Assembly: GCF_008727815.1 (NCBI RefSeq)
Contig: NZ_CP044230.1
Coordinates: forward strand, 2,069,381 to 2,133,380
Source: Streptococcus sp. LPB0220
GTDB taxonomy: Bacteria > Bacillota > Bacilli > Lactobacillales > Streptococcaceae
Direction of reading: 5' to 3'
DNA length: 64,000 nucleotides
The position numbers and the translations under genes are program-made. Below the pieces are notes generated by a model, which saw only the letters and a program-made list of their open reading frames with translations, searched no databases and was not told where the DNA came from. This document shows positions 24,362 through 42,617 of the stretch, in pieces; position 1 is the stretch's first letter; each line of letters starts with the position of its first letter.

Positions 24362-27157
24362 TTAGTCCTCTTCATATTTTTTTGGATTGTAAAACCACAT
24401 CCCTAGTCCCGCAAATAGAGCAATGGTCATCAAAAGAAAGACCACTTGATTTCCAATTTCTCCTGTCATCGAAATCGTTTGACGAAGACCAGAGACGGTA
24501 TAGCTCATTGGCAAGAATGGATGAATGGCTTGGAAAAATCCATTTGTCAAAGCAAGAGGATAAGTTCCTGCACTAGAAGCCAATTGCAAGAGCAAGAGGA
24601 TCAACGAGAGGAAAGCACCGACCTTTCTTTGCCATGTTGTTAAAGCGGTCACGATAGACATGAAGGCTAGACTACCGATCACACAAAGGAAGAGGGTAGC
24701 CATCTCATGATTGGCAGATAAACCAATCAAGTGAACAGCACCATAGACCAAGATTCCTGCAACCACCGCAATGGTTCCATTGACCTCAAAGCGAGATTTA
24801 AACCATGCCCAACGACTTTCAGGATGACGACCGGATGGCAATTTTGCAAAGATCATATTGGTTGACAAGGCACAAACAAAGAGTGCTACAGAGATCATAT
24901 AAGGAGCCATTCCGACACCATTCACCGGGACATTATCTTGATCTGTTTTAGAAGTCGTAACAGGATTGGCTAAGGTTTTTGCGTTTTCTTTTTCAGTTGT
25001 AGCAGCATTCAATTGTCCCTTAGCATCGTTTAATCCTTGACTCAAGGTTTGGCTTCCTGTTGCTAATTCACCTAAACCGTTTGTCAATGTTTGGCCACCC
25101 GTTGCTAATTTGCTGGATCCTTCTGAGATTTGATTTGCTCCGTCAGCTAGTTTATCAGCCCCATTCACCAATTGACTTGATTTTTCTGTCAACTGATTGA
25201 CACCAGTGACAAGTTTGTTGACACCACCTGCCAATTCTGGAGTTTTGCTGTTCAATTGTCCTACACCGTCAGCTAATTTTCCAGCACCGGCAACCAATTC
25301 ACCCGACTTACCTGTTAATTGGGTCGCTCCTGAAGCCAGTTGATTCATGCCTGATGTCAAGGCAGGCATCTTCCCATTTAACTCACCTAGACCAGAAGCT
25401 AATTGATTGCTTCCTGCAAGTAATTCTGATGATTTACTATCTAGTTGGCCAACCCCTGCTGCTAACTGACTAGCACCATCCGTTAAAGTGCTACTATTGG
25501 TCTGAAGTTGGCTTGCCCCACTAGCGATTTTATCAACACCAGCTGTATAAGCGCCAATCCCTTGACTGATGGTTTGGCTAGCCGGCAACAATTGTCCACT
25601 AACTGCGGATTGGATCTTAGACAAGCCACTTGACAAGTCTGTCAAGGTAGAAGAAGCTGTTGGTAAAACTTGATTGGCTGCAGTTTGCAGCTGTGTCAAG
25701 CTATTTCCTGTATTCAAACTACTTTGGATCGTTTGGATCGTTGTCAAGATCCCTTGAGCTGCTGTTTCACTCGAGCTTGGGCTAGATGAGATCGCCGCAC
25801 TGATTTCCGCTTGTTGATCAGCTGTCATTGCTTGATAAGCTGCTGTCCCTTGTACACTTGCAAGGGCATTTGCACGATCCGCTTGGGCTGAAGCAAGGAT
25901 TGATTGAGCTGAATTCGCAATACTCGTCAATCCAGACGAAAGTTGACTGGTATCTACTGAAGCATTTTGAATCGCTGCATTTAATTGGTTTAAACCAGCT
26001 GCCAATTGATCAATCTGAGCAGATTGACTTGTAGAAGCTTGTAGCTGGCTTGATAATGTTTGAATACCTGATTCTAATTGTGAAACCCCATTTCGAAGGG
26101 TAGCAGATTGACTACTTAATTGACCCGCTCCTTCTGATAAAGTAGCGACTCCATTTGTATAGGTTGCTAAACCATTTGAAAAGTTAGATAGGCCTGAATT
26201 CAATTGACGCACGCCATTGGTATAATTCCCAAGACCATCATTGAGGGTCCCCATACCACTGGTTAATTGACCAACTCCTGAAGCTAACTGAGGGGTTTGA
26301 CTCGCCATTTGATTGAGACCATTTCCTAATCGATCCACTCCGGTAGCGTAAGCCATCAAGCCTGTATTAAAAGTACCAAACCCATTATTTAATTGATTGA
26401 CGCCAGATACCAAGTTTGGAAGTTGACCAGCCATTTGATTGAGACCATTTCCTAATTGACCAACACCATCTGTATAGGCTGCTAGACCCGTACGAAGAGT
26501 AGTCGCACCATCTGAAAATGCTAAGCTTGAACGAGCCAATGTATTCAAATTAGTAGACAGTGTTTGACCACCATCTTCCAATTTACTTGCACCATCTGCT
26601 AATTTAGCACTTCCATCTGCCGCTGTCCCCATACCAGATTTAAGCGATCCCATTTTGGAAAATAAAGCTGTTGTATACGTATTGGTCACTTTTTCGGCCA
26701 CTGACTGCTTCATCTTTGTCATCGCAGTGTCGCTCATTTTCCCTGCGATAAAACTATGACCACTGGATGTTTGGTAATCAATGGTCATCTGTTCCGGATG
26801 ATTGGTTAAGATGGAGCTAGCTTTCTTTGAAAGATCCTCAGGCAGGGTTACAATCATATAATAATCGCCATTTTTAAGACCATCTTTCGCAGCTTTCTCA
26901 TCTACAAAATGAAAATCAAGTGAGTCATTGTCCTTCAAATTGGACACCATGTCTTTTCCTATTTCCATCTTTTGTCCATTATATGTAGCAGATTGATCCT
27001 TATTGACAACCGCTACAGGAAGATCCGAAACTTGGCCATATGGATCCCACATGGAAGATAGAAAAATAATATTATAAAGAGCTGGAATCAAAGCAACTCC
27101 AATCATGACAATGATAAATGTTGGCTTTTTAAGAATAGCCTTCCATTCTTTCATCAT
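24362..27157 (-). CDS. YhgE/Pip-type giant membrane protein with long periodic ectodomain
   Basis: 931-aa protein of the YhgE/phage-infection-protein type. One N-terminal span (about residues 15-35, PTFIIVMIGVALIPALYNII) is followed by an extracytoplasmic domain (AVVNKDQSATYNGQ). A very long repetitive stretch (about 200-720) has units like LGNGLNQMAxQxPxLxSGV and QLxxGxxxLxxG. Five spans close the C-terminus and resemble ABC-2 permeases. The start is ATG ATG at 27157/27154 behind AAAGGAG. The frame is open further upstream into the divergent regulator but without a start signal. Family members include the Lactococcus phage receptor Pip. Control by the adjacent TetR is likely. Confidence 0.9.
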   Translation of the reverse strand: MMKEWKAILKKPTFIIVMIGVALIPALYNIIFLSSMWDPYGQVSDLPVAVVNKDQSATYNGQKMEIGKDMVSNLKDNDSLDFHFVDEKAAKDGLKNGDYYMIVTLPEDLSKKASSILTNHPEQMTIDYQTSSGHSFIAGKMSDTAMTKMKQSVAEKVTNTYTTALFSKMGSLKSGMGTAADGSAKLADGASKLEDGGQTLSTNLNTLARSSLAFSDGATTLRTGLAAYTDGVGQLGNGLNQMAGQLPNLVSGVNQLNNGFGTFNTGLMAYATGVDRLGNGLNQMASQTPQLASGVGQLTSGMGTLNDGLGNYTNGVRQLNSGLSNFSNGLATYTNGVATLSEGAGQLSSQSATLRNGVSQLESGIQTLSSQLQASTSQSAQIDQLAAGLNQLNAAIQNASVDTSQLSSGLTSIANSAQSILASAQADRANALASVQGTAAYQAMTADQQAEISAAISSSPSSSETAAQGILTTIQTIQSSLNTGNSLTQLQTAANQVLPTASSTLTDLSSGLSKIQSAVSGQLLPASQTISQGIGAYTAGVDKIASGASQLQTNSSTLTDGASQLAAGVGQLDSKSSELLAGSNQLASGLGELNGKMPALTSGMNQLASGATQLTGKSGELVAGAGKLADGVGQLNSKTPELAGGVNKLVTGVNQLTEKSSQLVNGADKLADGANQISEGSSKLATGGQTLTNGLGELATGSQTLSQGLNDAKGQLNAATTEKENAKTLANPVTTSKTDQDNVPVNGVGMAPYMISVALFVCALSTNMIFAKLPSGRHPESRWAWFKSRFEVNGTIAVVAGILVYGAVHLIGLSANHEMATLFLCVIGSLAFMSIVTALTTWQRKVGAFLSLILLLLQLASSAGTYPLALTNGFFQAIHPFLPMSYTVSGLRQTISMTGEIGNQVVFLLMTIALFAGLGMWFYNPKKYEED

Positions 27158-27176
27158 ATTTTTTGTCTCCTTTTTA

Positions 27177-27269
27177 TACACATTGTCTAAATTTCTGATA
27201 TAATAGATTATACAGTTTCTAGAAATTTTCACAAGTAGCAAATCTTTATTTTTAGACACTGTGTATAAT
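27177..27269. promoter_or_regulatory. Divergent promoters with paired TetR-type operators
   Basis: Two inverted copies of one 15-base element: TACACATTGTCTAAA (27177-27191) and TTTAGACACTGTGTA (27251-27265), one mismatch between them. The minus-strand promoter of the YhgE gene is TTGTGA (27229-27234), 16 bases, TATAAT (27207-27212), with the left copy just downstream. The right copy overlaps the TATAAT (27264-27269) of the regulator gene. A dimeric repressor bound at both would silence both genes. Confidence 0.8.
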
Positions 27270-27291
27270 TTTGTGCAAAAAGGATTAACAG

Positions 27292-27825
27292 ATGACTGAG
27301 AGCAATAAACGATTAAAAACAAAACGAAATATCGAGGAGGCGATGGTTCGACTACTAGAAAAGGAATCATTCGACCAAATCACAACGGTTGAGTTAGCAC
27401 AAGAATCCGGCATTAGTCGCTCTAGCTTTTATACCCACTATCGAGACAAGTACGATATGATCGAGCGCTACCAACAAGCACTCTTTCACAAGCTTGAATA
27501 TATCTTTGACAAACACCAAGACGACAAGCGCCAAGCGATTACAGAAGTGTTCGAATTCCTAACCAAGGAGCCCCTCTTTGCAGTTCTTCTGACAGAGAAT
27601 GGAACCAAAGAGATCCAAACCTTCTTACGACATAAATTACAGATTCTTCTGGTTGATAGTTTGCAAGAGCGCTATAGTCATAAATCATTAACAGATATTG
27701 AAAGAGTCTACAGTTCTGTCTATCTGACCAATGCCTTCTTCGGAGTCTGTCAGATGTGGGTTTCGCGCGGAAAAAAAGAAAGTCCTCAACAAATGGCTGA
27801 ATTTTTATTGAAAATGTTACGGTAA
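27292..27825 (+). CDS. TetR/AcrR-family transcriptional regulator
   Basis: 177-aa regulator. The N-terminal TetR helix-turn-helix spans about residues 7-52 (KTKRNIEEAMVRLLEKESFD, then ELAQESGISRSSFYTHYRDK). An all-helical C-terminal domain with TetR_C33-like character follows. It is divergent from the YhgE/Pip gene, and its own -10 overlaps one of two inverted operator copies, so it most likely represses itself and its neighbour. The inducer is unknown. ATG follows AAAAAGGA. Confidence 0.9.
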   Translation: MTESNKRLKTKRNIEEAMVRLLEKESFDQITTVELAQESGISRSSFYTHYRDKYDMIERYQQALFHKLEYIFDKHQDDKRQAITEVFEFLTKEPLFAVLLTENGTKEIQTFLRHKLQILLVDSLQERYSHKSLTDIERVYSSVYLTNAFFGVCQMWVSRGKKESPQQMAEFLLKMLR

Positions 27826-31814: not shown

Positions 31815-33173
31815 TTATTGATCCTCTCTCTTTGAAATACTTGAGAATTTATTGTATTCCTTTTGGAATATTAATTCGACTGTCCCACGCGCACCTGAAC
31901 GGTTTTTCTCGATAATCACTTCAACCGTATTATTAGGCATTCCATCTTCTTCCTCTTCACCAGCTCGATCATAATAATCATCACGGTACAAGAAAGCAAC
32001 AATATCCGCATCCTGCTCAATCGATCCAGATTCACGAATATCAGAAAGAACAGGACGTTTGTCTTGGCGCTGTTCCACACCACGTGATAGCTGACTCAAA
32101 GCAATAACGGGAACTTTTAGTTCCTTAGCCAAAATCTTTAACTGACGAGAAATTTCTGAAACTTCCTGTTGACGGTTTTCTCTTCCAGTCCCTGTAATCA
32201 GCTGCAGGTAGTCAATCAGAATAAGACCGAGATTCCCTGTTTCCTGCGCTAATTTTCTTGCTCTCGAACGAATCTCAGTGATCCGAATTCCTGGGGTATC
32301 ATCGATGTAAATACTCGCATTGGCCAAATTTCCTTGAGCAATGGCATATTTCCGCCACTCTTCATCCGTCAATTGACCTGTACGAATCGAATGGGATTCA
32401 ATCAAACCTTCAGCTGCTAACATCCGGTCAACCAAACTCTCAGCACCCATTTCTAATGAGAAAATAGCCACTGTCTTATCCAACTTTGTCCCGATATTTT
32501 GAGCAATATTTAGAGCAAAGGCTGTTTTCCCTACTGCAGGACGAGCCGCTAAAATAATCAACTCTTCCTCATGTAGCCCTGTCGTCATATGGTCCAAATC
32601 GCGATAGCCTGTCGCAATACCCGTAATATCAGAGGTTTGAAGAGAGCGGGCTTCCAAGCTACCAAAATTTATATTCAAGATGTCTCGAATATTTTTAAAT
32701 CCACTACGATTTGCGTTTTCACTAACATCAATCAGAGCTTTTTCAGCACCCGCAATGATTTCATCTGAAGGACTTGCACCATCATAAGCTTGATTAATAC
32801 TTTCCGTTAATCGAGAGATCAATCGACGTAAAACAGCTTTTTCGGCAACAATCTTCGCGTAATACTCTGCGTTAGCTGAAGTTGGTACCGAATTAATGAC
32901 TTCTACCAAATAGGAGAGACCGCCAATATTTTGGAGATCCCCCTGACTATCTAAAATATTTCGAACAGTCGTCGCATCAATCGCATCCCCGCGGTCAGCT
33001 AGATCGATCATGGCTTTAAAAATCAAACGGTGCGAGTACTTAAAGAAATCGCCAGGCTCGATATATTCACGAACAAAGACCAATTTCCCCTCATCAATAA
33101 AGATGGCTCCCAACACTGATTGCTCCGCTTGGATATCCTGAGGTTGTGTTCGTAATTCCTCTATCTCAGCCAT
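31815..33173 (-). CDS. dnaC: Replicative DNA helicase (DnaB family)
   Basis: 452-aa hexameric helicase that unwinds DNA ahead of the replication fork; in Firmicutes the gene is named dnaC. The N-terminal domain (TQPQDIQAEQSVLGAIFID) binds primase. The RecA-like motor has Walker A AARPAVGKTAFALN (about 210-223) and GLILIDYLQLITG. The length is standard. The start follows AGAAAGG. Location after rplI is conserved in streptococci. Confidence 0.98.
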   Translation of the reverse strand: MAEIEELRTQPQDIQAEQSVLGAIFIDEGKLVFVREYIEPGDFFKYSHRLIFKAMIDLADRGDAIDATTVRNILDSQGDLQNIGGLSYLVEVINSVPTSANAEYYAKIVAEKAVLRRLISRLTESINQAYDGASPSDEIIAGAEKALIDVSENANRSGFKNIRDILNINFGSLEARSLQTSDITGIATGYRDLDHMTTGLHEEELIILAARPAVGKTAFALNIAQNIGTKLDKTVAIFSLEMGAESLVDRMLAAEGLIESHSIRTGQLTDEEWRKYAIAQGNLANASIYIDDTPGIRITEIRSRARKLAQETGNLGLILIDYLQLITGTGRENRQQEVSEISRQLKILAKELKVPVIALSQLSRGVEQRQDKRPVLSDIRESGSIEQDADIVAFLYRDDYYDRAGEEEEDGMPNNTVEVIIEKNRSGARGTVELIFQKEYNKFSSISKREDQ

Positions 33174-33198: not shown

Positions 33199-33651
33199 TT
33201 ATCCTTCGTTTACACGAATATTAATCACACCTGTAACATCTTGATAAATTTTTACAGGGACGTCAATCAATCCTGTTGAACGAATTGGAGAGGAAACTTG
33301 GATATGACGTTTATCAATTTTAATGCCAAATTGTTTCTCAAGCTCTTCTGCAATCTTTTTATTGGTAATAGAGCCGAAGGTACGGCCATCTGGCCCAATT
33401 TTTTCAGTGAATTGAACAACAGTTGCTTCTTCTTCTAATTTCGCTTTAATCTTTTGCGCTTCCGCTAACAATTCAGCATGCGCTTTTTCTTCTGACTTTT
33501 GCTTTCCACGAAGTTCACCGATTGCTTGGGCATTGGCTTCTTTCGCAAGATTTTTCTTGATCAAAAAGTTTTGTGCATAACCAGTAGGCACTTCTTTAAT
33601 TTCGCCTTTTTTACCTTTACCTTTTACATCCGCTAAGAAAATAACTTTCAT
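33199..33651 (-). CDS. rplI: 50S ribosomal protein L9
   Basis: 150-aa L9 that binds 23S rRNA at the base of the L1 stalk. The N-terminal domain [20 protein letters not shown] with the signature [10 protein letters not shown], a long connecting helix, and the C-terminal domain are all present. ATGA overlap with the end of gdpP gives translational coupling; AAGGAG precedes the ATG. Confidence 0.98.
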
Positions 33652-35627
33652 TCTACATTCTCCTTTTCAATAGTTACTTCGTTTTCAATAGTCTCAATCA
33701 GTTGTTGACGAATACTCATCAAATCTTGACCCTCAATTTGAGAGGCTGCCGAATTGAAATGGCCTCCTCCGCCAAGCTGTTCCATGATACGCTGTACATT
33801 GACTTTGCTTCGACTTCGTGCAGAAATCGAGACAGTCCCACTTTGATTACAAGCAATGACAAAGGTTGCTTCCACCTCAGACATGGCTAGCATACTATCA
33901 GCTGCTTTACTAATAGTTACTGAATCATAGGCTTTAGTCGTATTGGCACAAGCTACGATGATATGCGGCAAAATCTTTTCACCAGTCAAGATCAGTTCGT
34001 TCACTTCGCGGTACTCATCAAACTGAATCGCAGAGATCTCCTGGATGGTTACACTATCACTACCTCTTGAACGAAGGTAACTCGCCACATCAAAGGTCCG
34101 ACTCGTAACACGTGCTGAGAAGTTCTTAGTATCCAGCATAATCCCAGCCATCAAGACACTAGCTTGAATCTTCGTTAACCGATTTTTCTTCGACTTCTGG
34201 AACTGAATAAGTTCACTAACCAATTCGCTCGCACTACTTGCTCCACTTTCAATATAGGTGATCAGAACATTTTCAGGGAAATCATCATCCCGACGGTGAT
34301 GGTCAATGACAATAATCTGTTGAAATTCCTAATAAAACTCTTTAGAAAGGGTCAAGGCTGTCTTAGAATGGTCCACCATAATTAACAAAGAGCGATCCGT
34401 CACCATTTGCATGGCTTCCTCTAGGGGAAGGATTTTCGTTACCTGCTCTTCTTCTAGTTTCGCAATCGCTCTTGAAATATCACTAGCCATTGCATGCGGG
34501 TCATAGACCACATAAGAGGAAGCCAAAATATTGCTAGAGAAAAACTGCATTCCCACAGACGCTCCTAAAGCATCCATATCCAAGTTTCTATGTCCAACAA
34601 TGAAGACTTGATCAACGGATTTAATCTTATCCGAAATAGCTGTCATCATAGCGCGTGTGCGTGTCCGAGTCCGCTTAACAGCCGAAGCTGTTCCACCACC
34701 AAAGAAAATAGGGTTTTTCTGTTCATCATTTTCTTTGACAACTGCTTGATCCCCACCACGAACTTCCGCAAGGTTTAGGTTCAAGAGGGCCACTTTACCA
34801 ATCTCATCATGCTCCCCGTCACCGTACGAGAATCCCATACTTAAGGTAATAGGTAGCTCACGATTTTTGGCTTCTTCACGGAATTGATCGATGACTGAAA
34901 ATTTTGATTCCATCAACTGTTCTAAGACCGTGTAGTCTGTAAACAAATAGAAACGATCCATCCCCACACGTCTGTAAAACATATGGTAACGAGCTGTAAA
35001 CTCTTCTACAAAGTTGGCAATAAAACTATTGATATTGCTAATATCAGAGTCTGAAATGACATCTTCTAGATCATCATAGTTATCAACAGAAATAATACCG
35101 ATAACGGGACGAGTTGTCACCAATCCCACAGTTGCTTCATACTCACTTGAAACATCAAAAAAGTAAACAACACTAGACGTCTGATCAAAGTAAACAGAAT
35201 ATTTCTTATCGGCTACAGTGACATAATGACCTTTATCCTCAAACAGAGTATTGAGTAACTTTTTCAAGGATTCAACATCAAAGTCTCCATCATCTGTTGA
35301 AAAAATCAATTCAGCATAAGGGTTGAACCACTCTACTTCATTTGACTCTTCATTAATTTTGATAACTCCAACAGGCATTTTATCAAGGAGGGATGCTAAT
35401 CCGCTTTCTGCCTGATGATTAACATATTGTATTTGTTCTAATTCATCTAACTCTGAAATTTGTAACTGGTATTCAAATAAAGCAATCAATCCAGCTAAGA
35501 CTAAAAAAATTGCAATGAGAGTTACATAGCCTTTGCCAAAGATTCTTAAAAAAATTGCTAAAATTGCAAATGAAATAAAACCAATTAACACATAATGGAT
35601 GAACGATAAACGAAATTTTTTCATCAT
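33648..35627 (-). pseudogene. gdpP: c-di-AMP phosphodiesterase GdpP (Pde1), interrupted by in-frame TAG
   Basis: A 660-codon frame for membrane c-di-AMP phosphodiesterase: two N-terminal spans (about 10-50), a PAS-like region, a degenerate GGDEF region (about 170-300), then DHH/DHHA1. A single TAG at 34329-34331 (codon 433) interrupts it. Both sides are in the same frame and everything else is intact, so this is a nonsense change, not a frameshift. The stop falls inside the DHH domain, after HRNLDMDALGAS (346) but before the catalytic VIDHHRRDDDFP (Asp442-His443-His444) and the substrate-binding GGGGHFNSAAS. The product would be inactive unless the codon is read through. Loss should raise c-di-AMP. 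The downstream part has a TTG at 34223 but no clear ribosome site. Confidence 0.9.
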
Positions 35628-35733
35628 AAACCTCTTCTCGGAATTATACCATAATTAGAGGTAAAAAGCGAGGTTTCTCTCTATATTACAGAGAAGATTG
35701 ACCAGTCAAAAACTCTTTCTCCACTTCACTACC

Positions 35734-35823: not shown

Positions 35824-37734
35824 TTAGTGGTTTGCTTTGTTTTTGGAGATACTCCGAGATTTACCTTCCAAGTAAACCATTAAAATAGAGATATCTGCTG
35901 GATTGACACCTGAGATACGACTTGCTTGACCAATCGTTTCTGGATTAATTAATTTAAATTTTTGACGAGCTTCGGTTGCAATGGAGTCAATATCATCCCA
36001 GTCAATATTTGCTGGAATTCGTTTTTCTTCCATACGCTTCATTTTTTCGACTTGGTCCATTGCTTTTGAAATATAACCTTCGTATTTAATTTCAGTTTCA
36101 ATCAATTCAATGATTTTATCATCCAGTTCTTCAGCTGCAGGACCGATAAATTCCACCACATCTTGGTAAGACACTTCTGGTCGTCTTAAGAATTCTTTAG
36201 CAGTGACAGCATCTGTCAATGGTTTAAAGCCCATTGCAGCAACCTTCTCATTGGTTTCCTTTACAGGCTTTAGCTTAATGCTATCCAAACGCTTCATCTC
36301 TTTTTCAAACTGATACTTCTTGGTTTCGAAACGTTGCCAACGTTCATCATCTACCAATCCAATTTCTCGTCCCATTTCTGTCAAGCGCATATCGGCATTA
36401 TCATGACGCAAAATCAAACGGTATTCTGCACGGCTTGTTAACAAACGATACGGTTCGATCGTTCCCTTTGTTACCAAATCATCGATCATGACCCCAATAT
36501 AACCATCACTGCGTTTCAAAATGAGTTCTGGTTTTCCTTGGATTTTTAGAGCCGCATTGATCCCTGCAATAATCCCTTGACCAGCGGCCTCCTCATAGCC
36601 AGACGTTCCATTGGTTTGGCCAGCTGTAAAGAGACCTGAAATTTTCTTGGTTTCCAAAGTTGCGCGCAATTGATGAGGCAAGACCATATCATACTCAATT
36701 GCATAACCCGTACGCATCATTTCAGCCTTCTCAAGTCCCTTAATAGAATGGACGAGATCCCGCTGAACATCCTCTGGTAAACTCGTTGACAACCCTTGAA
36801 CATAGACTTCTTCTGTGTTTCGTCCCTCTGGTTCTAAGAATAGTTGATGACGTTCTTTGTCAGCAAAACGGACAATTTTATCCTCAATAGACGGACAATA
36901 GCGAGGACCTACTCCCTTTACAACTCCTGTAAACATAGGTGCCCGGTGTAAATTATTCTGGATAATTTCATGACTATGACCATTCGTATAAGTCAACCAA
37001 CAAGGAACTTGATCCTTTACATAATCTTCATCACGCGATGTATAAGAAAAATGATTTGGAGCTTCATCTCCAGGTTGAATTTCCGTTTCGTCATAATTAA
37101 TTGACGATGCCTTTACACGAGGTGGCGTGCCTGTTTTGAAACGTCCAATTTCTAATCCTAGCTGTTTGAGATTATCGGCCAAATTGATAGAAGCTAGACT
37201 ATGATTAGGTCCTGACGAATACTTGAGGTCTCCAATGATAATTTCTCCGCGTAAAGCTGTCCCAGTAGTGACAATAACAGCCTTTGCGCCATATTCTTGG
37301 TGAGTCGCAGTCCTTACACCAACAACCTTACCATTCTCCACCAAAATCTCATCAATCATGGTTTGGCGAAGGGTTAAATTTTCTTGGTTTTCAACCGTTT
37401 TCCGCATTTCTTTTGAGTAAAGTTCTTTGTCTGCTTGAGCCCGAAGTGCACGAACCGCAGGACCTTTACCAGTATTGAGCATTTTCATTTGGATGTAGGT
37501 CTTGTCGATATTCTTCGCCATTTCTCCACCGAGGGCATCGACTTCACGCACGACAATCCCCTTAGCAGAACCACCAATAGAGGGATTACAAGGCATAAAA
37601 GCCAGCATTTCAATGTTAATAGTCGCAAGTAAGACCTTACAACCCATACGGCTAGCAGCTAGAGAGGCTTCTACTCCCGCATGCCCCGCACCGATTACAA
37701 TGATATCGTATTCTTCTATAAAGTTATAATTCAT
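35824..37734 (-). CDS. mnmG: tRNA uridine-5-carboxymethylaminomethyl modification enzyme MnmG
   Basis: 636-aa FAD protein that, with MnmE, modifies the wobble uridine of several tRNAs. The dinucleotide-binding motif [20 protein letters not shown] lies at residues 12-31 and the GidA signature includes [11 protein letters not shown] and [15 protein letters not shown]. The ATG at 37734 was chosen because TAGGAG lies seven bases before it and it matches the family start ([17 protein letters not shown]). A Nudix gene precedes it by ten bases, so the two are cotranscribed. Confidence 0.97.
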
Positions 37735-37744
37735 TCTATTTCTC

Positions 37745-38200
37745 CTATTTCTCAAGATGGATGTGTCGTAATTTTCCGTCCCAGTCTGGTAGGGCTGATT
37801 TTAAAAAAGCCGGTTTCAGGTCAACAGTGTGTAAATCATCTAAAGCAATCCAACGGCAAGGTAATTGCTTTGTATCTTCCTGCATGACCAAAGGTGCATC
37901 TTCCAGTAAGTCCACCAAATAATGAAATTCAATGTTATGGTAGTGGATTCCAGCTTGTTCAAAGTGATTTTCAACCACGAAAGCTAACGGACCTGCTGTA
38001 GATGTGACACCAAGTTCCTCTTTGACTTCCCGAACTACAGCATCTTCTGTAGTTTCATTGACTTGAATAGCACCTCCGATTGTATAACAGCCGTCCTCAT
38101 CTTCTATGACGAACAAGCGATTATCTTTTACAATCAAAGCAGTCGCCCTCACACCAAAAACAGTAGAACCTATTTTCGTTCGAAAATCCTGTCGCCTCAT
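37745..38200 (-). CDS. Nudix hydrolase
   Basis: 151-aa Nudix-family pyrophosphohydrolase. The Nudix box [20 protein letters not shown] plus ELGV matches GX5EX7REUXEEXGU. The ATG at 38200 was chosen for AAAGGAAG upstream. The substrate is unknown. It is cotranscribed with mnmG from TTGACA-N16-TACAAT at 38309-38336. The 100-base leader can form a small TGCAGG/CCTGCA hairpin (38243-38263). Confidence 0.9.
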
Positions 38201-41113: not shown

Positions 41114-41986
41114 ATGTTTTATTCAATTGTAGACCTCGTAGAACAAGCAAGCACGCAATACGAAGGAAACGTCGCAGAGTTAATGATTGCAACTGAATTT
41201 GAACTAACCGGTCGTGAACGAGAAGAAGTCCTACGATTAATGACCCGTAATTTAGAAGTGATGATTGATTCTGTAAAGTTAGGGTTAAATGAAAACCACT
41301 CTCGTAGTGGGTTAACCGGTGGGGATGCCGCAAAATTAGATCGCTATATCAAATCAGGAAAAACGTTATCTGACTTGACCGTCCTAACCGCAGCGAAGAA
41401 TGCTATTGCTGTCAACGAACACAATGCTAAGATGGGACTGGTCTGCGCAACACCCACTGCAGGATCTGCTGGCTGCCTCCCCGCAGTTCTCACTGCAGCA
41501 ACTCAAAAATTAGGGTTAAACCGTCAGCAACAATTAGATTTTCTACTGACAGCTGGAGCTTTTGGTTTAGTGATCGCAAATAATGCTTCTATTTCAGGTG
41601 CAGAAGGTGGTTGTCAAGCAGAAGTTGGTTCTGCTTCAGCTATGAGTGCAGCAGCATTGACACTAGCTGCTGGGGGAACTCCTTATCAAGCGAGTCAAGC
41701 AGTCTGTTTTGTCATCAAAAACATGCTTGGGCTCATTTGTGATCCAGTAGCAGGACTCGTGGAAGTTCCATGTGTTAAACGGAACGCAATGGGAGCTAGC
41801 TATGCCTTCATTGCTGCTGATATGGCCTTAGCAGGTATTGAATCAAAAATACCTGTTGATGAAGTGATTGACGCCATGTACCAAGTTGGATCTAGTCTTC
41901 CGACTGCCTTTAGAGAAACAGCTGAAGGAGGATTGGCAGCAACACCAACCGGACGTAGATTACAAAAAGAGATATTTGGAGAATAA
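41114..41986 (+). CDS. sdaAA: L-serine dehydratase, iron-sulfur-dependent, alpha subunit
   Basis: 290-aa catalytic subunit with cysteines suited to a 4Fe-4S cluster: CATPTAGSAGCLPAVL, the Cys in GAEGGCQAEVGSASAMSAAA, and LICDPVAGLVEVPCVKRNAM. The length is standard. A HAD phosphatase gene starts directly after its stop. Confidence 0.96.
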   Translation: MFYSIVDLVEQASTQYEGNVAELMIATEFELTGREREEVLRLMTRNLEVMIDSVKLGLNENHSRSGLTGGDAAKLDRYIKSGKTLSDLTVLTAAKNAIAVNEHNAKMGLVCATPTAGSAGCLPAVLTAATQKLGLNRQQQLDFLLTAGAFGLVIANNASISGAEGGCQAEVGSASAMSAAALTLAAGGTPYQASQAVCFVIKNMLGLICDPVAGLVEVPCVKRNAMGASYAFIAADMALAGIESKIPVDEVIDAMYQVGSSLPTAFRETAEGGLAATPTGRRLQKEIFGE

Positions 41987-41987
41987 C

Positions 41988-42617
41988 ATGCAAGCCTTAT
42001 TTTTTGATTTAGATGGAACATTAGTTGACAGTTCCAAGGGAATTACAGAGAGCTTTCAACATACATTCGATACTTTGAAGGTTCCTCAACCCGATCTCAA
42101 AACTATCCGTAGTTTTATGGGACCACCTTTGATTTCTAGTTTTGAAGCTACCCTTCCTGAAACTTTGGTAGATCAAGCAGTGATGATCTATCGCCAGTAT
42201 TATCATGAAAAAGGTCAATACAAATCAACTCTGTTTCCTCAGATAGTAGAAGCTTTGAAAGCATTACAAGACGAAAACATTCCTCTTTATGTAACTACTT
42301 CAAAACATGAACCAGTTGCTTTACAGATGTGTCAAGATTTAGGTATCGATAAATACTTTAAAGGAATTTATGGATCAAATTCAGATCGTATCCACAAAGC
42401 CGATGTCATTCGATACGCCTTGTCAAGCAATGACCTTCCAAAAGAGGAGACAGTGATTATTGGAGACACAAAATTTGACCTCATTGGAGGTCAAACAGTT
42501 GGCATAAAAACCATGGCCGTCACTTGGGGATTTGGAGATCTTGAAGAGCTACTTCTTTACTCACCAGATTTTATTTGTCACTCTCCACTTGACATTCTTG
42601 AGACATTAAAAAAATAG
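41988..42617 (+). CDS. HAD-superfamily hydrolase, phosphoglycolate-phosphatase-like
   Basis: 209-aa HAD hydrolase. Motif I is FFDLDGTLVDS (residues 5-15, nucleophile Asp), motif II VTTSK and motif IV IIGDTKFDLIGG. The cap domain falls between motifs I and II, as in Gph-type phosphatases. The ATG at 41988, one base after the sdaAA stop, is chosen by alignment of MQALFFDLDGTL; TTTGGAGAA serves as ribosome site. The substrate is unknown. It shares a terminator with the convergent LysM gene. Confidence 0.92.
   Translation: MQALFFDLDGTLVDSSKGITESFQHTFDTLKVPQPDLKTIRSFMGPPLISSFEATLPETLVDQAVMIYRQYYHEKGQYKSTLFPQIVEALKALQDENIPLYVTTSKHEPVALQMCQDLGIDKYFKGIYGSNSDRIHKADVIRYALSSNDLPKEETVIIGDTKFDLIGGQTVGIKTMAVTWGFGDLEELLLYSPDFICHSPLDILETLKK

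What the first reader, a model, noticed from the sequence alone, without database searches (positions are those of the whole stretch)
34329..34331. Single in-frame TAG inactivates the c-di-AMP phosphodiesterase gene gdpP
The frame from 35627 to 33648 reads as a complete GdpP except for one TAG at codon 433. Both sides are in the same frame. The stop removes the catalytic DHH triad (codons 442-444) and the DHHA1 substrate site. Loss of GdpP is known in Gram-positives to raise c-di-AMP and to change beta-lactam tolerance, osmotic and potassium control. It looks recent because the downstream 228 codons show no decay. It could be a real natural mutation, a laboratory-selected one or a sequencing error.
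Basis: partly seen in the sequence, partly recalled or inferred. Interest (0 to 1): 0.8.

Follow-up and report, generated by a model that had tools for sequence, protein, structure and literature searches.

The report
Broken c-di-AMP phosphodiesterase gene, S. parasanguinis
In this Streptococcus parasanguinis-like genome one stop codon cuts off the catalytic end of GdpP, an enzyme that destroys the signal molecule c-di-AMP; this kind of loss is already known in other cocci, often with penicillin resistance, and the genome also carries altered penicillin targets.

Summary
The window is the end of a one-contig Streptococcus genome of the S. parasanguinis clade. gdpP has one in-frame TAG at 34329-34331, codon 433. 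The part before it keeps the PAS, GGDEF and first half of the DHH domain; the DHH triad and DHHA1 lie after it. Of 18 clade genomes 16 have an open gdpP, this one has the TAG, and one (HSISM1) a frameshift. A distant Streptococcus (G173) has an independent TAG five codons further on. The 226 codons downstream show no decay, so the lesion is recent. None of the 56 tRNA genes found is an amber suppressor; no ATG, GTG or TTG restart precedes the triad. cdaA, an NrnA/Pde2-type gene and rplI are intact. Outside the window PBP1a carries SSMK plus NTGY, pneumococcal resistance motifs, together only in this genome of 18. Best reading: a recent loss-of-function gdpP allele, possibly tied to beta-lactam exposure: a known kind (S. 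pneumoniae pde1, S. aureus gdpP), unreported for this species in my searches. A single-base error cannot be excluded without reads.

The parts
35643..35651 (-). extended -10-like promoter element (TGG then TATAAT) of gdpP
   Evidence: read directly; not among the consensus hits; the same bases stand upstream of gdpP in L005
35792..35818 (-). terminator-like hairpin between mnmG/gidA and gdpP
   Evidence: 3 terminator-like sites found on both strands, mean 2.0 in shuffles, so weak
34332..35627 (-). open 5' part of gdpP: 432 codons with PAS_GdpP, GGDEF_GdpP and the first half of the DHH domain
34329..34331 (-). in-frame TAG, codon 433
33651..34328 (-). undecayed 3' part of gdpP after the stop (226 codons): DHH triad (codons 442-444), rest of the DHH domain, DHHA1 with GGGGH
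33648..34223 (-). ORF from the TTG suggested as restart; begins after the DHH triad
33199..33651 (-). rplI (ribosomal protein L9), ATGA overlap with the gdpP end; own AAGGAG ribosome site 8 nt before its ATG
31815..33173 (-). dnaB, replicative DNA helicase, downstream neighbour, open
35824..37755 (-). mnmG/gidA, upstream neighbour, open

Best explanation
A recent nonsense mutation has turned gdpP (pde1) of this S. parasanguinis-clade strain into a loss-of-function allele. Shown: the stop, the domains before and after it, open copies in 16 of 18 clade genomes, no decay, no ATG/GTG/TTG restart before the triad, no suppressor among the tRNA genes found, intact cdaA and NrnA/Pde2-type gene, and an rplI with its own ribosome site. 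Inferred: the product, if stable, is a membrane-bound PAS-GGDEF fragment with half a DHH domain and no c-di-AMP hydrolysis; the Pde2-type enzyme becomes the main drain, and c-di-AMP rises moderately (about twofold in an S. pneumoniae pde1 deletion, PMC10576035). Also inferred, with less certainty: the allele rose under beta-lactam exposure, because the same genome has PBP1a with SSMK plus NTGY and a PBP2X with a divergent block, as in S. pneumoniae, where pde1 nonsense alleles are enriched in resistant isolates.
For: Stop and domains. Clade comparison: 18 genomes at 97% identity or more: 16 open, G000 TAG, G262 frameshift; 92 of 93 distinct loci have a sense codon there. No decay: (4 codons private to G000 against 16 intact relatives, 2 before and 2 after the stop, all synonymous; nonsynonymous to synonymous 34:271 for the C part of G000 against relatives, 318:2670 among relatives). 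No suppressor: 56 tRNA hits; 53 in fetched stretches and 3 in the window read by ARAGORN, none with a CTA anticodon. cdaA: no residue private to G000 among 17 genomes. The three other DHH genes are open in 18 of 18. PBP1a SSMK and NTGY together in 1 of 18, G000. PBP2X: 65 of 135 differences from G252 lie in nt 1151-1450. Literature: PMC10576035, PMC8715439 (passages), PMC8765234 (passages).
Against: No reads, no c-di-AMP, no MIC, no strain name for G000. One genome cannot show association. SSMK occurs in G170 and G086 and NTGY in G038, all with intact gdpP, and the PBP2X block is shared with G170, so these alleles circulate without the stop. G262, the other broken gdpP of the clade, has STMK and no NTGY; G173 has STMK. 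A pde1 deletion in S. mitis left ampicillin MIC unchanged. In S. pneumoniae about 90% of natural nonsense mutations sit in the membrane segment, not here, and nonsense alleles are much rarer in natural populations than in laboratory selection.
Confidence: 0.75

Rival explanations
1. Sequencing or assembly error: one wrong base in a finished genome; the living strain has an intact GdpP.
For: No reads available. The rest of the gene is undecayed and shows only synonymous private changes. Of the ORFs of three syntenic relatives found in the window (48, 56 and 50), gdpP is the only one with a real mid-gene stop here.
Against: It is a substitution outside a homopolymer, in a genome of 1 contig rated 99.99% complete; indels in homopolymers are the commoner error (general knowledge). 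Mid-gene stops are not unheard of in the clade: the relative G097 has one in another gene of the same region. gdpP nonsense alleles are a known recurrent class.
Confidence: 0.18
2. Neutral or laboratory loss: the stop arose during culture or by drift, with no tie to beta-lactams. This differs from the best explanation only in the cause; the allele is null in both.
For: Recent, no decay. G262 shows a gdpP frameshift with ordinary PBP1a motifs. In S. mitis a pde1 deletion grew in a pattern similar to wild type, with a generation time 1.27 times longer.
Against: PBP1a and PBP2X of this genome look altered and recombined.
Confidence: 0.3
3. Leaky or programmed stop: the TAG is partly read through, or the fragment itself has a role as a membrane PAS-GGDEF sensor.
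For: A second species, G173, has an independent TAG five codons further on, also just before the DHH triad; the part after its stop is open to the end.
Against: No suppressor among the tRNA genes found. The stop is not conserved: 16 of 18 clade genomes lack it, and of the 279 of 284 genus genomes with a visible row only G000 and G173 show an in-frame stop that I place inside the gene (G262 has a frameshift). In G000 no ATG, GTG or TTG stands between the TAG and the triad.
Confidence: 0.04

Closest known systems
S. pneumoniae pde1 (spd_2032) loss-of-function alleles (PMC10576035)
   Same: Same gene, same place before rplI with overlapping frames, nonsense class, seen with altered PBPs
   Different: Natural pneumococcal nonsense mutations cluster in the N-terminal membrane segment (about 90%); here codon 433, just before the DHH triad. 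Phenotype untested here
S. aureus gdpP truncations in beta-lactam-resistant isolates without mec (PMC8715439, passages)
   Same: Truncations that remove the DHH/DHHA1 catalytic part, such as R397*
   Different: Different genus; PBP changes of the streptococcal kind were not part of the passages I saw
S. mitis pde1 deletion (PMC7570391, abstract; PMC12453120, passages)
   Same: Oral commensal streptococcus with CdaA, GdpP-type Pde1 and DhhP-type Pde2; the deletion raises c-di-AMP
   Different: Deletion made in the laboratory; ampicillin MIC and NaCl tolerance unchanged

Membership tests
GdpP/Pde1 c-di-AMP phosphodiesterase | PAS, degenerate GGDEF, DHH and DHHA1 domains in one frame | tested here: not met
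   All four domains are present in the DNA, but the TAG divides the DHH domain. Member by descent, not a complete member as translated
GdpP/Pde1 c-di-AMP phosphodiesterase | Locus between mnmG/gidA and rplI-dnaB (as in relatives) | tested here: met
GdpP/Pde1 c-di-AMP phosphodiesterase | c-di-AMP hydrolysis | not testable with these tools
   needs an enzyme assay
pde1/gdpP loss-of-function allele | Nonsense or frameshift before or in the catalytic domain, relatives intact | tested here: met
pde1/gdpP loss-of-function allele | Raised c-di-AMP and altered beta-lactam response | not testable with these tools
   no strain in hand
Beta-lactam-selected PBP background | PBP1a STMK and TSQF motifs changed to SSMK/SAMK and NTGY (pneumococcal definition, PMC8765234, passages) | tested here: inconclusive
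   both in G000 only, 1 of 18. The clade's usual fourth motif is not TSQF but NAY or NSSY, so the definition is carried over by analogy; PBP2X STMK and the PBP2B motifs are unaltered in all 6 genomes compared
Programmed stop-codon read-through | Stop conserved at the same site in relatives, or a suppressor tRNA | tested here: not met

The most novel reading that the evidence does not exclude
TAG codons placed just before the DHH triad, in this strain and independently in a distant Streptococcus, yield a tolerated or even useful truncated GdpP: a membrane PAS-GGDEF fragment without hydrolase, with rare read-through giving a little enzyme. Truncation would then tune c-di-AMP instead of simply destroying the gene.
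Probability: 0.04. Interest if true: 0.65.

Novelty: new member of a known kind. Interest (0 to 1): 0.3.

Why it matters
If real, it extends the pde1/gdpP loss known from S. pneumoniae and S. aureus to S. parasanguinis, an oral commensal; viridans streptococci are known (recalled) to exchange pbp genes. It puts a broken gdpP and altered PBP1a/PBP2X in one genome, which makes the 'gateway to penicillin resistance' idea testable in a commensal. As a single natural allele of a known class it is of moderate interest only.

Tried and rejected
Suppressor tRNA: looked for a CTA anticodon among the 56 tRNA genes found; none. Internal restart: the first ATG/GTG/TTG after the stop is the TTG at 34223, after the triad; rejected as a rescue. 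Polarity on rplI: rplI overlaps gdpP but has its own ribosome site; not pursued further. Compensating change in cdaA: none private to G000 among 17 (the first attempt, picked the wrong neighbouring ORF and was discarded). Stops flagged for G205, G010, G013, G165, G151, G023, G006, G182, G280 (TAG) and G011 (TAA): five of these ten were re-read (G205, G280, G011, G010, G013) and show no internal stop, only G280 one in the next-to-last aligned column; one search lists the nine TAG cases with none. So they are the natural ends. The TGA of G039 was not re-read; one search lists G039 with none. G109 (83% complete, 4% contaminated) splits into two frames near residue 590 and G265 matches only from residue 51; neither was followed. 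A post hoc Fisher test (2 of 18 clade genomes broken against 2 of 261 others, counting G173 and G109; p = 0.02) is not leaned on: it includes low-grade genomes and was thought of afterwards. Window-wide check for other broken genes: the remaining flagged cases were start-side, end-of-ORF or window-end differences, two of them short ORFs of under 100 aa. Protein database search for truncated GdpP alleles (120 of 3288 hits shown): short entries such as P0078, P0107 and P0108 were seen, not followed, and may be contig ends.

Full report
What was checked. The minus-strand frame from 35627 to 33648 is gdpP. It carries one TAG at 34329-34331. The tool places the window at the end of a one-contig genome of 2,133,380 bases. 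The best-matching named loci are Streptococcus parasanguinis or Streptococcus sp.: ten loci at 99-100% protein identity, the next at 76% (the best 80 of 121 kept). So the host is an S. parasanguinis-clade strain; its own record is not named.

Anatomy. Before the stop: PAS_GdpP, GGDEF_GdpP and DHH profile positions 1-53. After it: DHH positions 65-125 and DHHA1. The DHH triad (codons 442-444) and GGGGH of DHHA1 lie after the stop. The nearest solved relatives are a cyclic-di-AMP phosphodiesterase chain, 9n0l (matched over residues 70-654 of the intact relative), and 5xsi, a shorter chain matched over residues 318-650. The promoter-like TATAAT and the ribosome site upstream look normal. rplI overlaps the end of gdpP but has its own AAGGAG, so its translation need not depend on the stop. 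Streptococci lack Rho as far as I recall, so transcriptional polarity is not expected; this was not tested. The neighbours are MnmG, L9 and DnaB by NCBIfam, each over the curated cut-off.

Relatives. The protein of an intact relative was searched in 284 genomes of the genus. Eighteen genomes match at 97% or more: 16 are open over the whole gene, G000 has the TAG, and G262 has a frameshift. G262 shows the same lesion as L013, Streptococcus sp. HSISM1: a run of seven T near codon 26 is five T there. gidA (residues 7-643 of 643), rplI (whole) and the part of dnaB held (residues 1-389 of 452) show no frameshift in L013. In 93 distinct loci at hand, 92 have a sense codon at the site, and six different residues occur there.

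Genus-wide view. The listings are cut, so I combined them. By my reading of E-values against the cut of each list, 279 of 284 genomes have at least one visible row; G206, G207, G227, G266 and G268 have none, and G079, G095, G109, G111 and G153 are visible only through the N-part search. Frameshifts show in these tables only as shortened matches. Clear internal breaks: G000, G262 and G173. G173 is 60% identical to the S. parasanguinis protein and 80% to that of G136. It has a TAG five codons downstream of the G000 position, just before its DHH triad. There a GTG stands directly before the triad, the third codon after the stop, so re-initiation is conceivable in G173; G000 has no such codon. Two independent TAGs so close in a 650-codon gene is a coincidence that I cannot explain; it may be chance.

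Age. Against 16 intact relatives G000 has four private codons in gdpP besides the stop, two before and two after it, all synonymous. Nonsynonymous to synonymous differences in the C part are 34:271 for G000 against relatives and 318:2670 among relatives. There is no sign of relaxed selection, so the stop is recent or false. Four private codons are few, so this test has little power.

Read-through and rescue. The 56 tRNA hits of the genome were read by ARAGORN, 53 in fetched stretches and 3 in the window. None has a CTA anticodon. No ATG, GTG or TTG lies between the stop and the DHH triad.

Other stops in the window. Of the ORFs of three syntenic relatives found in the window (48 from G170, 56 from G094, 50 from G097) only gdpP has a mid-gene stop. 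The other way round, of 51 window ORFs found in G097 one has a mid-gene stop there, at codon 42 of 1002. So such a stop is rare, but not unique to this genome.

The rest of the pathway. One diadenylate cyclase gene with no residue private to G000 among 17 genomes. The three DHH genes other than gdpP are open in 18 of 18 genomes: a 741-codon frame that I take for RecJ (not tested), a manganese-dependent inorganic pyrophosphatase over its cut-off (L003), and an NrnA-type protein below that model's cut-off (212.6 of 350 bits; L004), which I take for Pde2/DhhP.

Signs of beta-lactam history. PBP1a, PBP2X and PBP2B are named by NCBIfam over the cut-offs. PBP1a of this genome has SSMK where 15 of 18 clade genomes have STMK, and NTGY where 16 of 18 have NAY, NSSY or NIGY. 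SSMK also occurs in G170 and G086, and NTGY in G038. Only G000 has both. In S. pneumoniae these two changes enter a regression as raising the predicted penicillin MIC (PMC8765234, passages). The NTGY stretch looks imported: against G252 no difference lies between nt 1109 and 1670, then 24 differing columns of 72 fall within nt 1671-1797. PBP2X has 65 of its 135 differences from G252 within nt 1151-1450, and differs from G170 at one base only after about nt 850. PBP2B motifs are unaltered in all 6 genomes compared, and PBP2X keeps STMK in all 6. The VKSG of PBP2X is common to all 6, so it says nothing here. PBP2X and PBP2B were compared in 6 of 18 genomes only.

Literature. In S. pneumoniae 40% of 20 ampicillin-selected mutants had pde1 mutations, almost all nonsense or frameshift. 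Deletion raised c-di-AMP about twofold and penicillin G MIC about twofold, and nonsense alleles were fourfold enriched in resistant isolates; their frequency in nature was much lower than in the laboratory (PMC10576035; abstract, Results parts 1-2 of 3 and Discussion part 1 of 2 read). In S. aureus 131 isolates resistant without mec carried gdpP mutations, 37 of them truncations (PMC8715439, passages). In S. mitis pde1 deletion did not change ampicillin MIC or NaCl tolerance (PMC12453120, passages), and c-di-AMP rose in phosphodiesterase mutants (PMC7570391, abstract and outline). No paper in the library held both 'parasanguinis' and 'gdpP'. Two held 'parasanguinis' and 'pde1': in PMC11123721 the passages tie pde1 to S. 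mitis, not to S. parasanguinis; PMC7948813 was seen as a listing only. Four held 'parasanguinis' and 'c-di-AMP', PMC11123721 among them, the other three seen as a listing only.

Verdict. A true in-frame stop in the sequence, most likely a recent loss-of-function allele of a class already described, in a species where my searches found no report of it. The beta-lactam link is circumstantial. An assembly error remains a live rival.

Noticed in passing
L127:2647-2649 (G173): Independent in-frame TAG in gdpP of a distant Streptococcus, five codons beyond the G000 position and just before its DHH triad; a GTG, third codon after the stop, could allow re-initiation.
   Followed up: partly
L013:3061-3090 (Streptococcus sp. 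HSISM1; G262): Run of seven T near codon 26 of gdpP is five T: frameshift, possibly a slippage site or a sequencing error.
   Followed up: partly
L197:435-2552 (G000, outside the window): PBP1a with SSMK and NTGY and a dense block of differences at nt 1671-1797.
   Followed up: yes
L185:531-2825 (G000, outside the window): PBP2X with a strongly divergent block at nt 1151-1450, shared with G170 but not with four other relatives.
   Followed up: partly
24362-27370: Homologue of this 1002-aa gene in G097 has an internal stop at codon 42; gene not identified.
   Followed up: no
41838-42614: Apparent stop against G094 and G097 lies upstream of the likely true start of a HAD-like phosphatase (name recalled from its sequence); not a broken gene.
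   Followed up: partly
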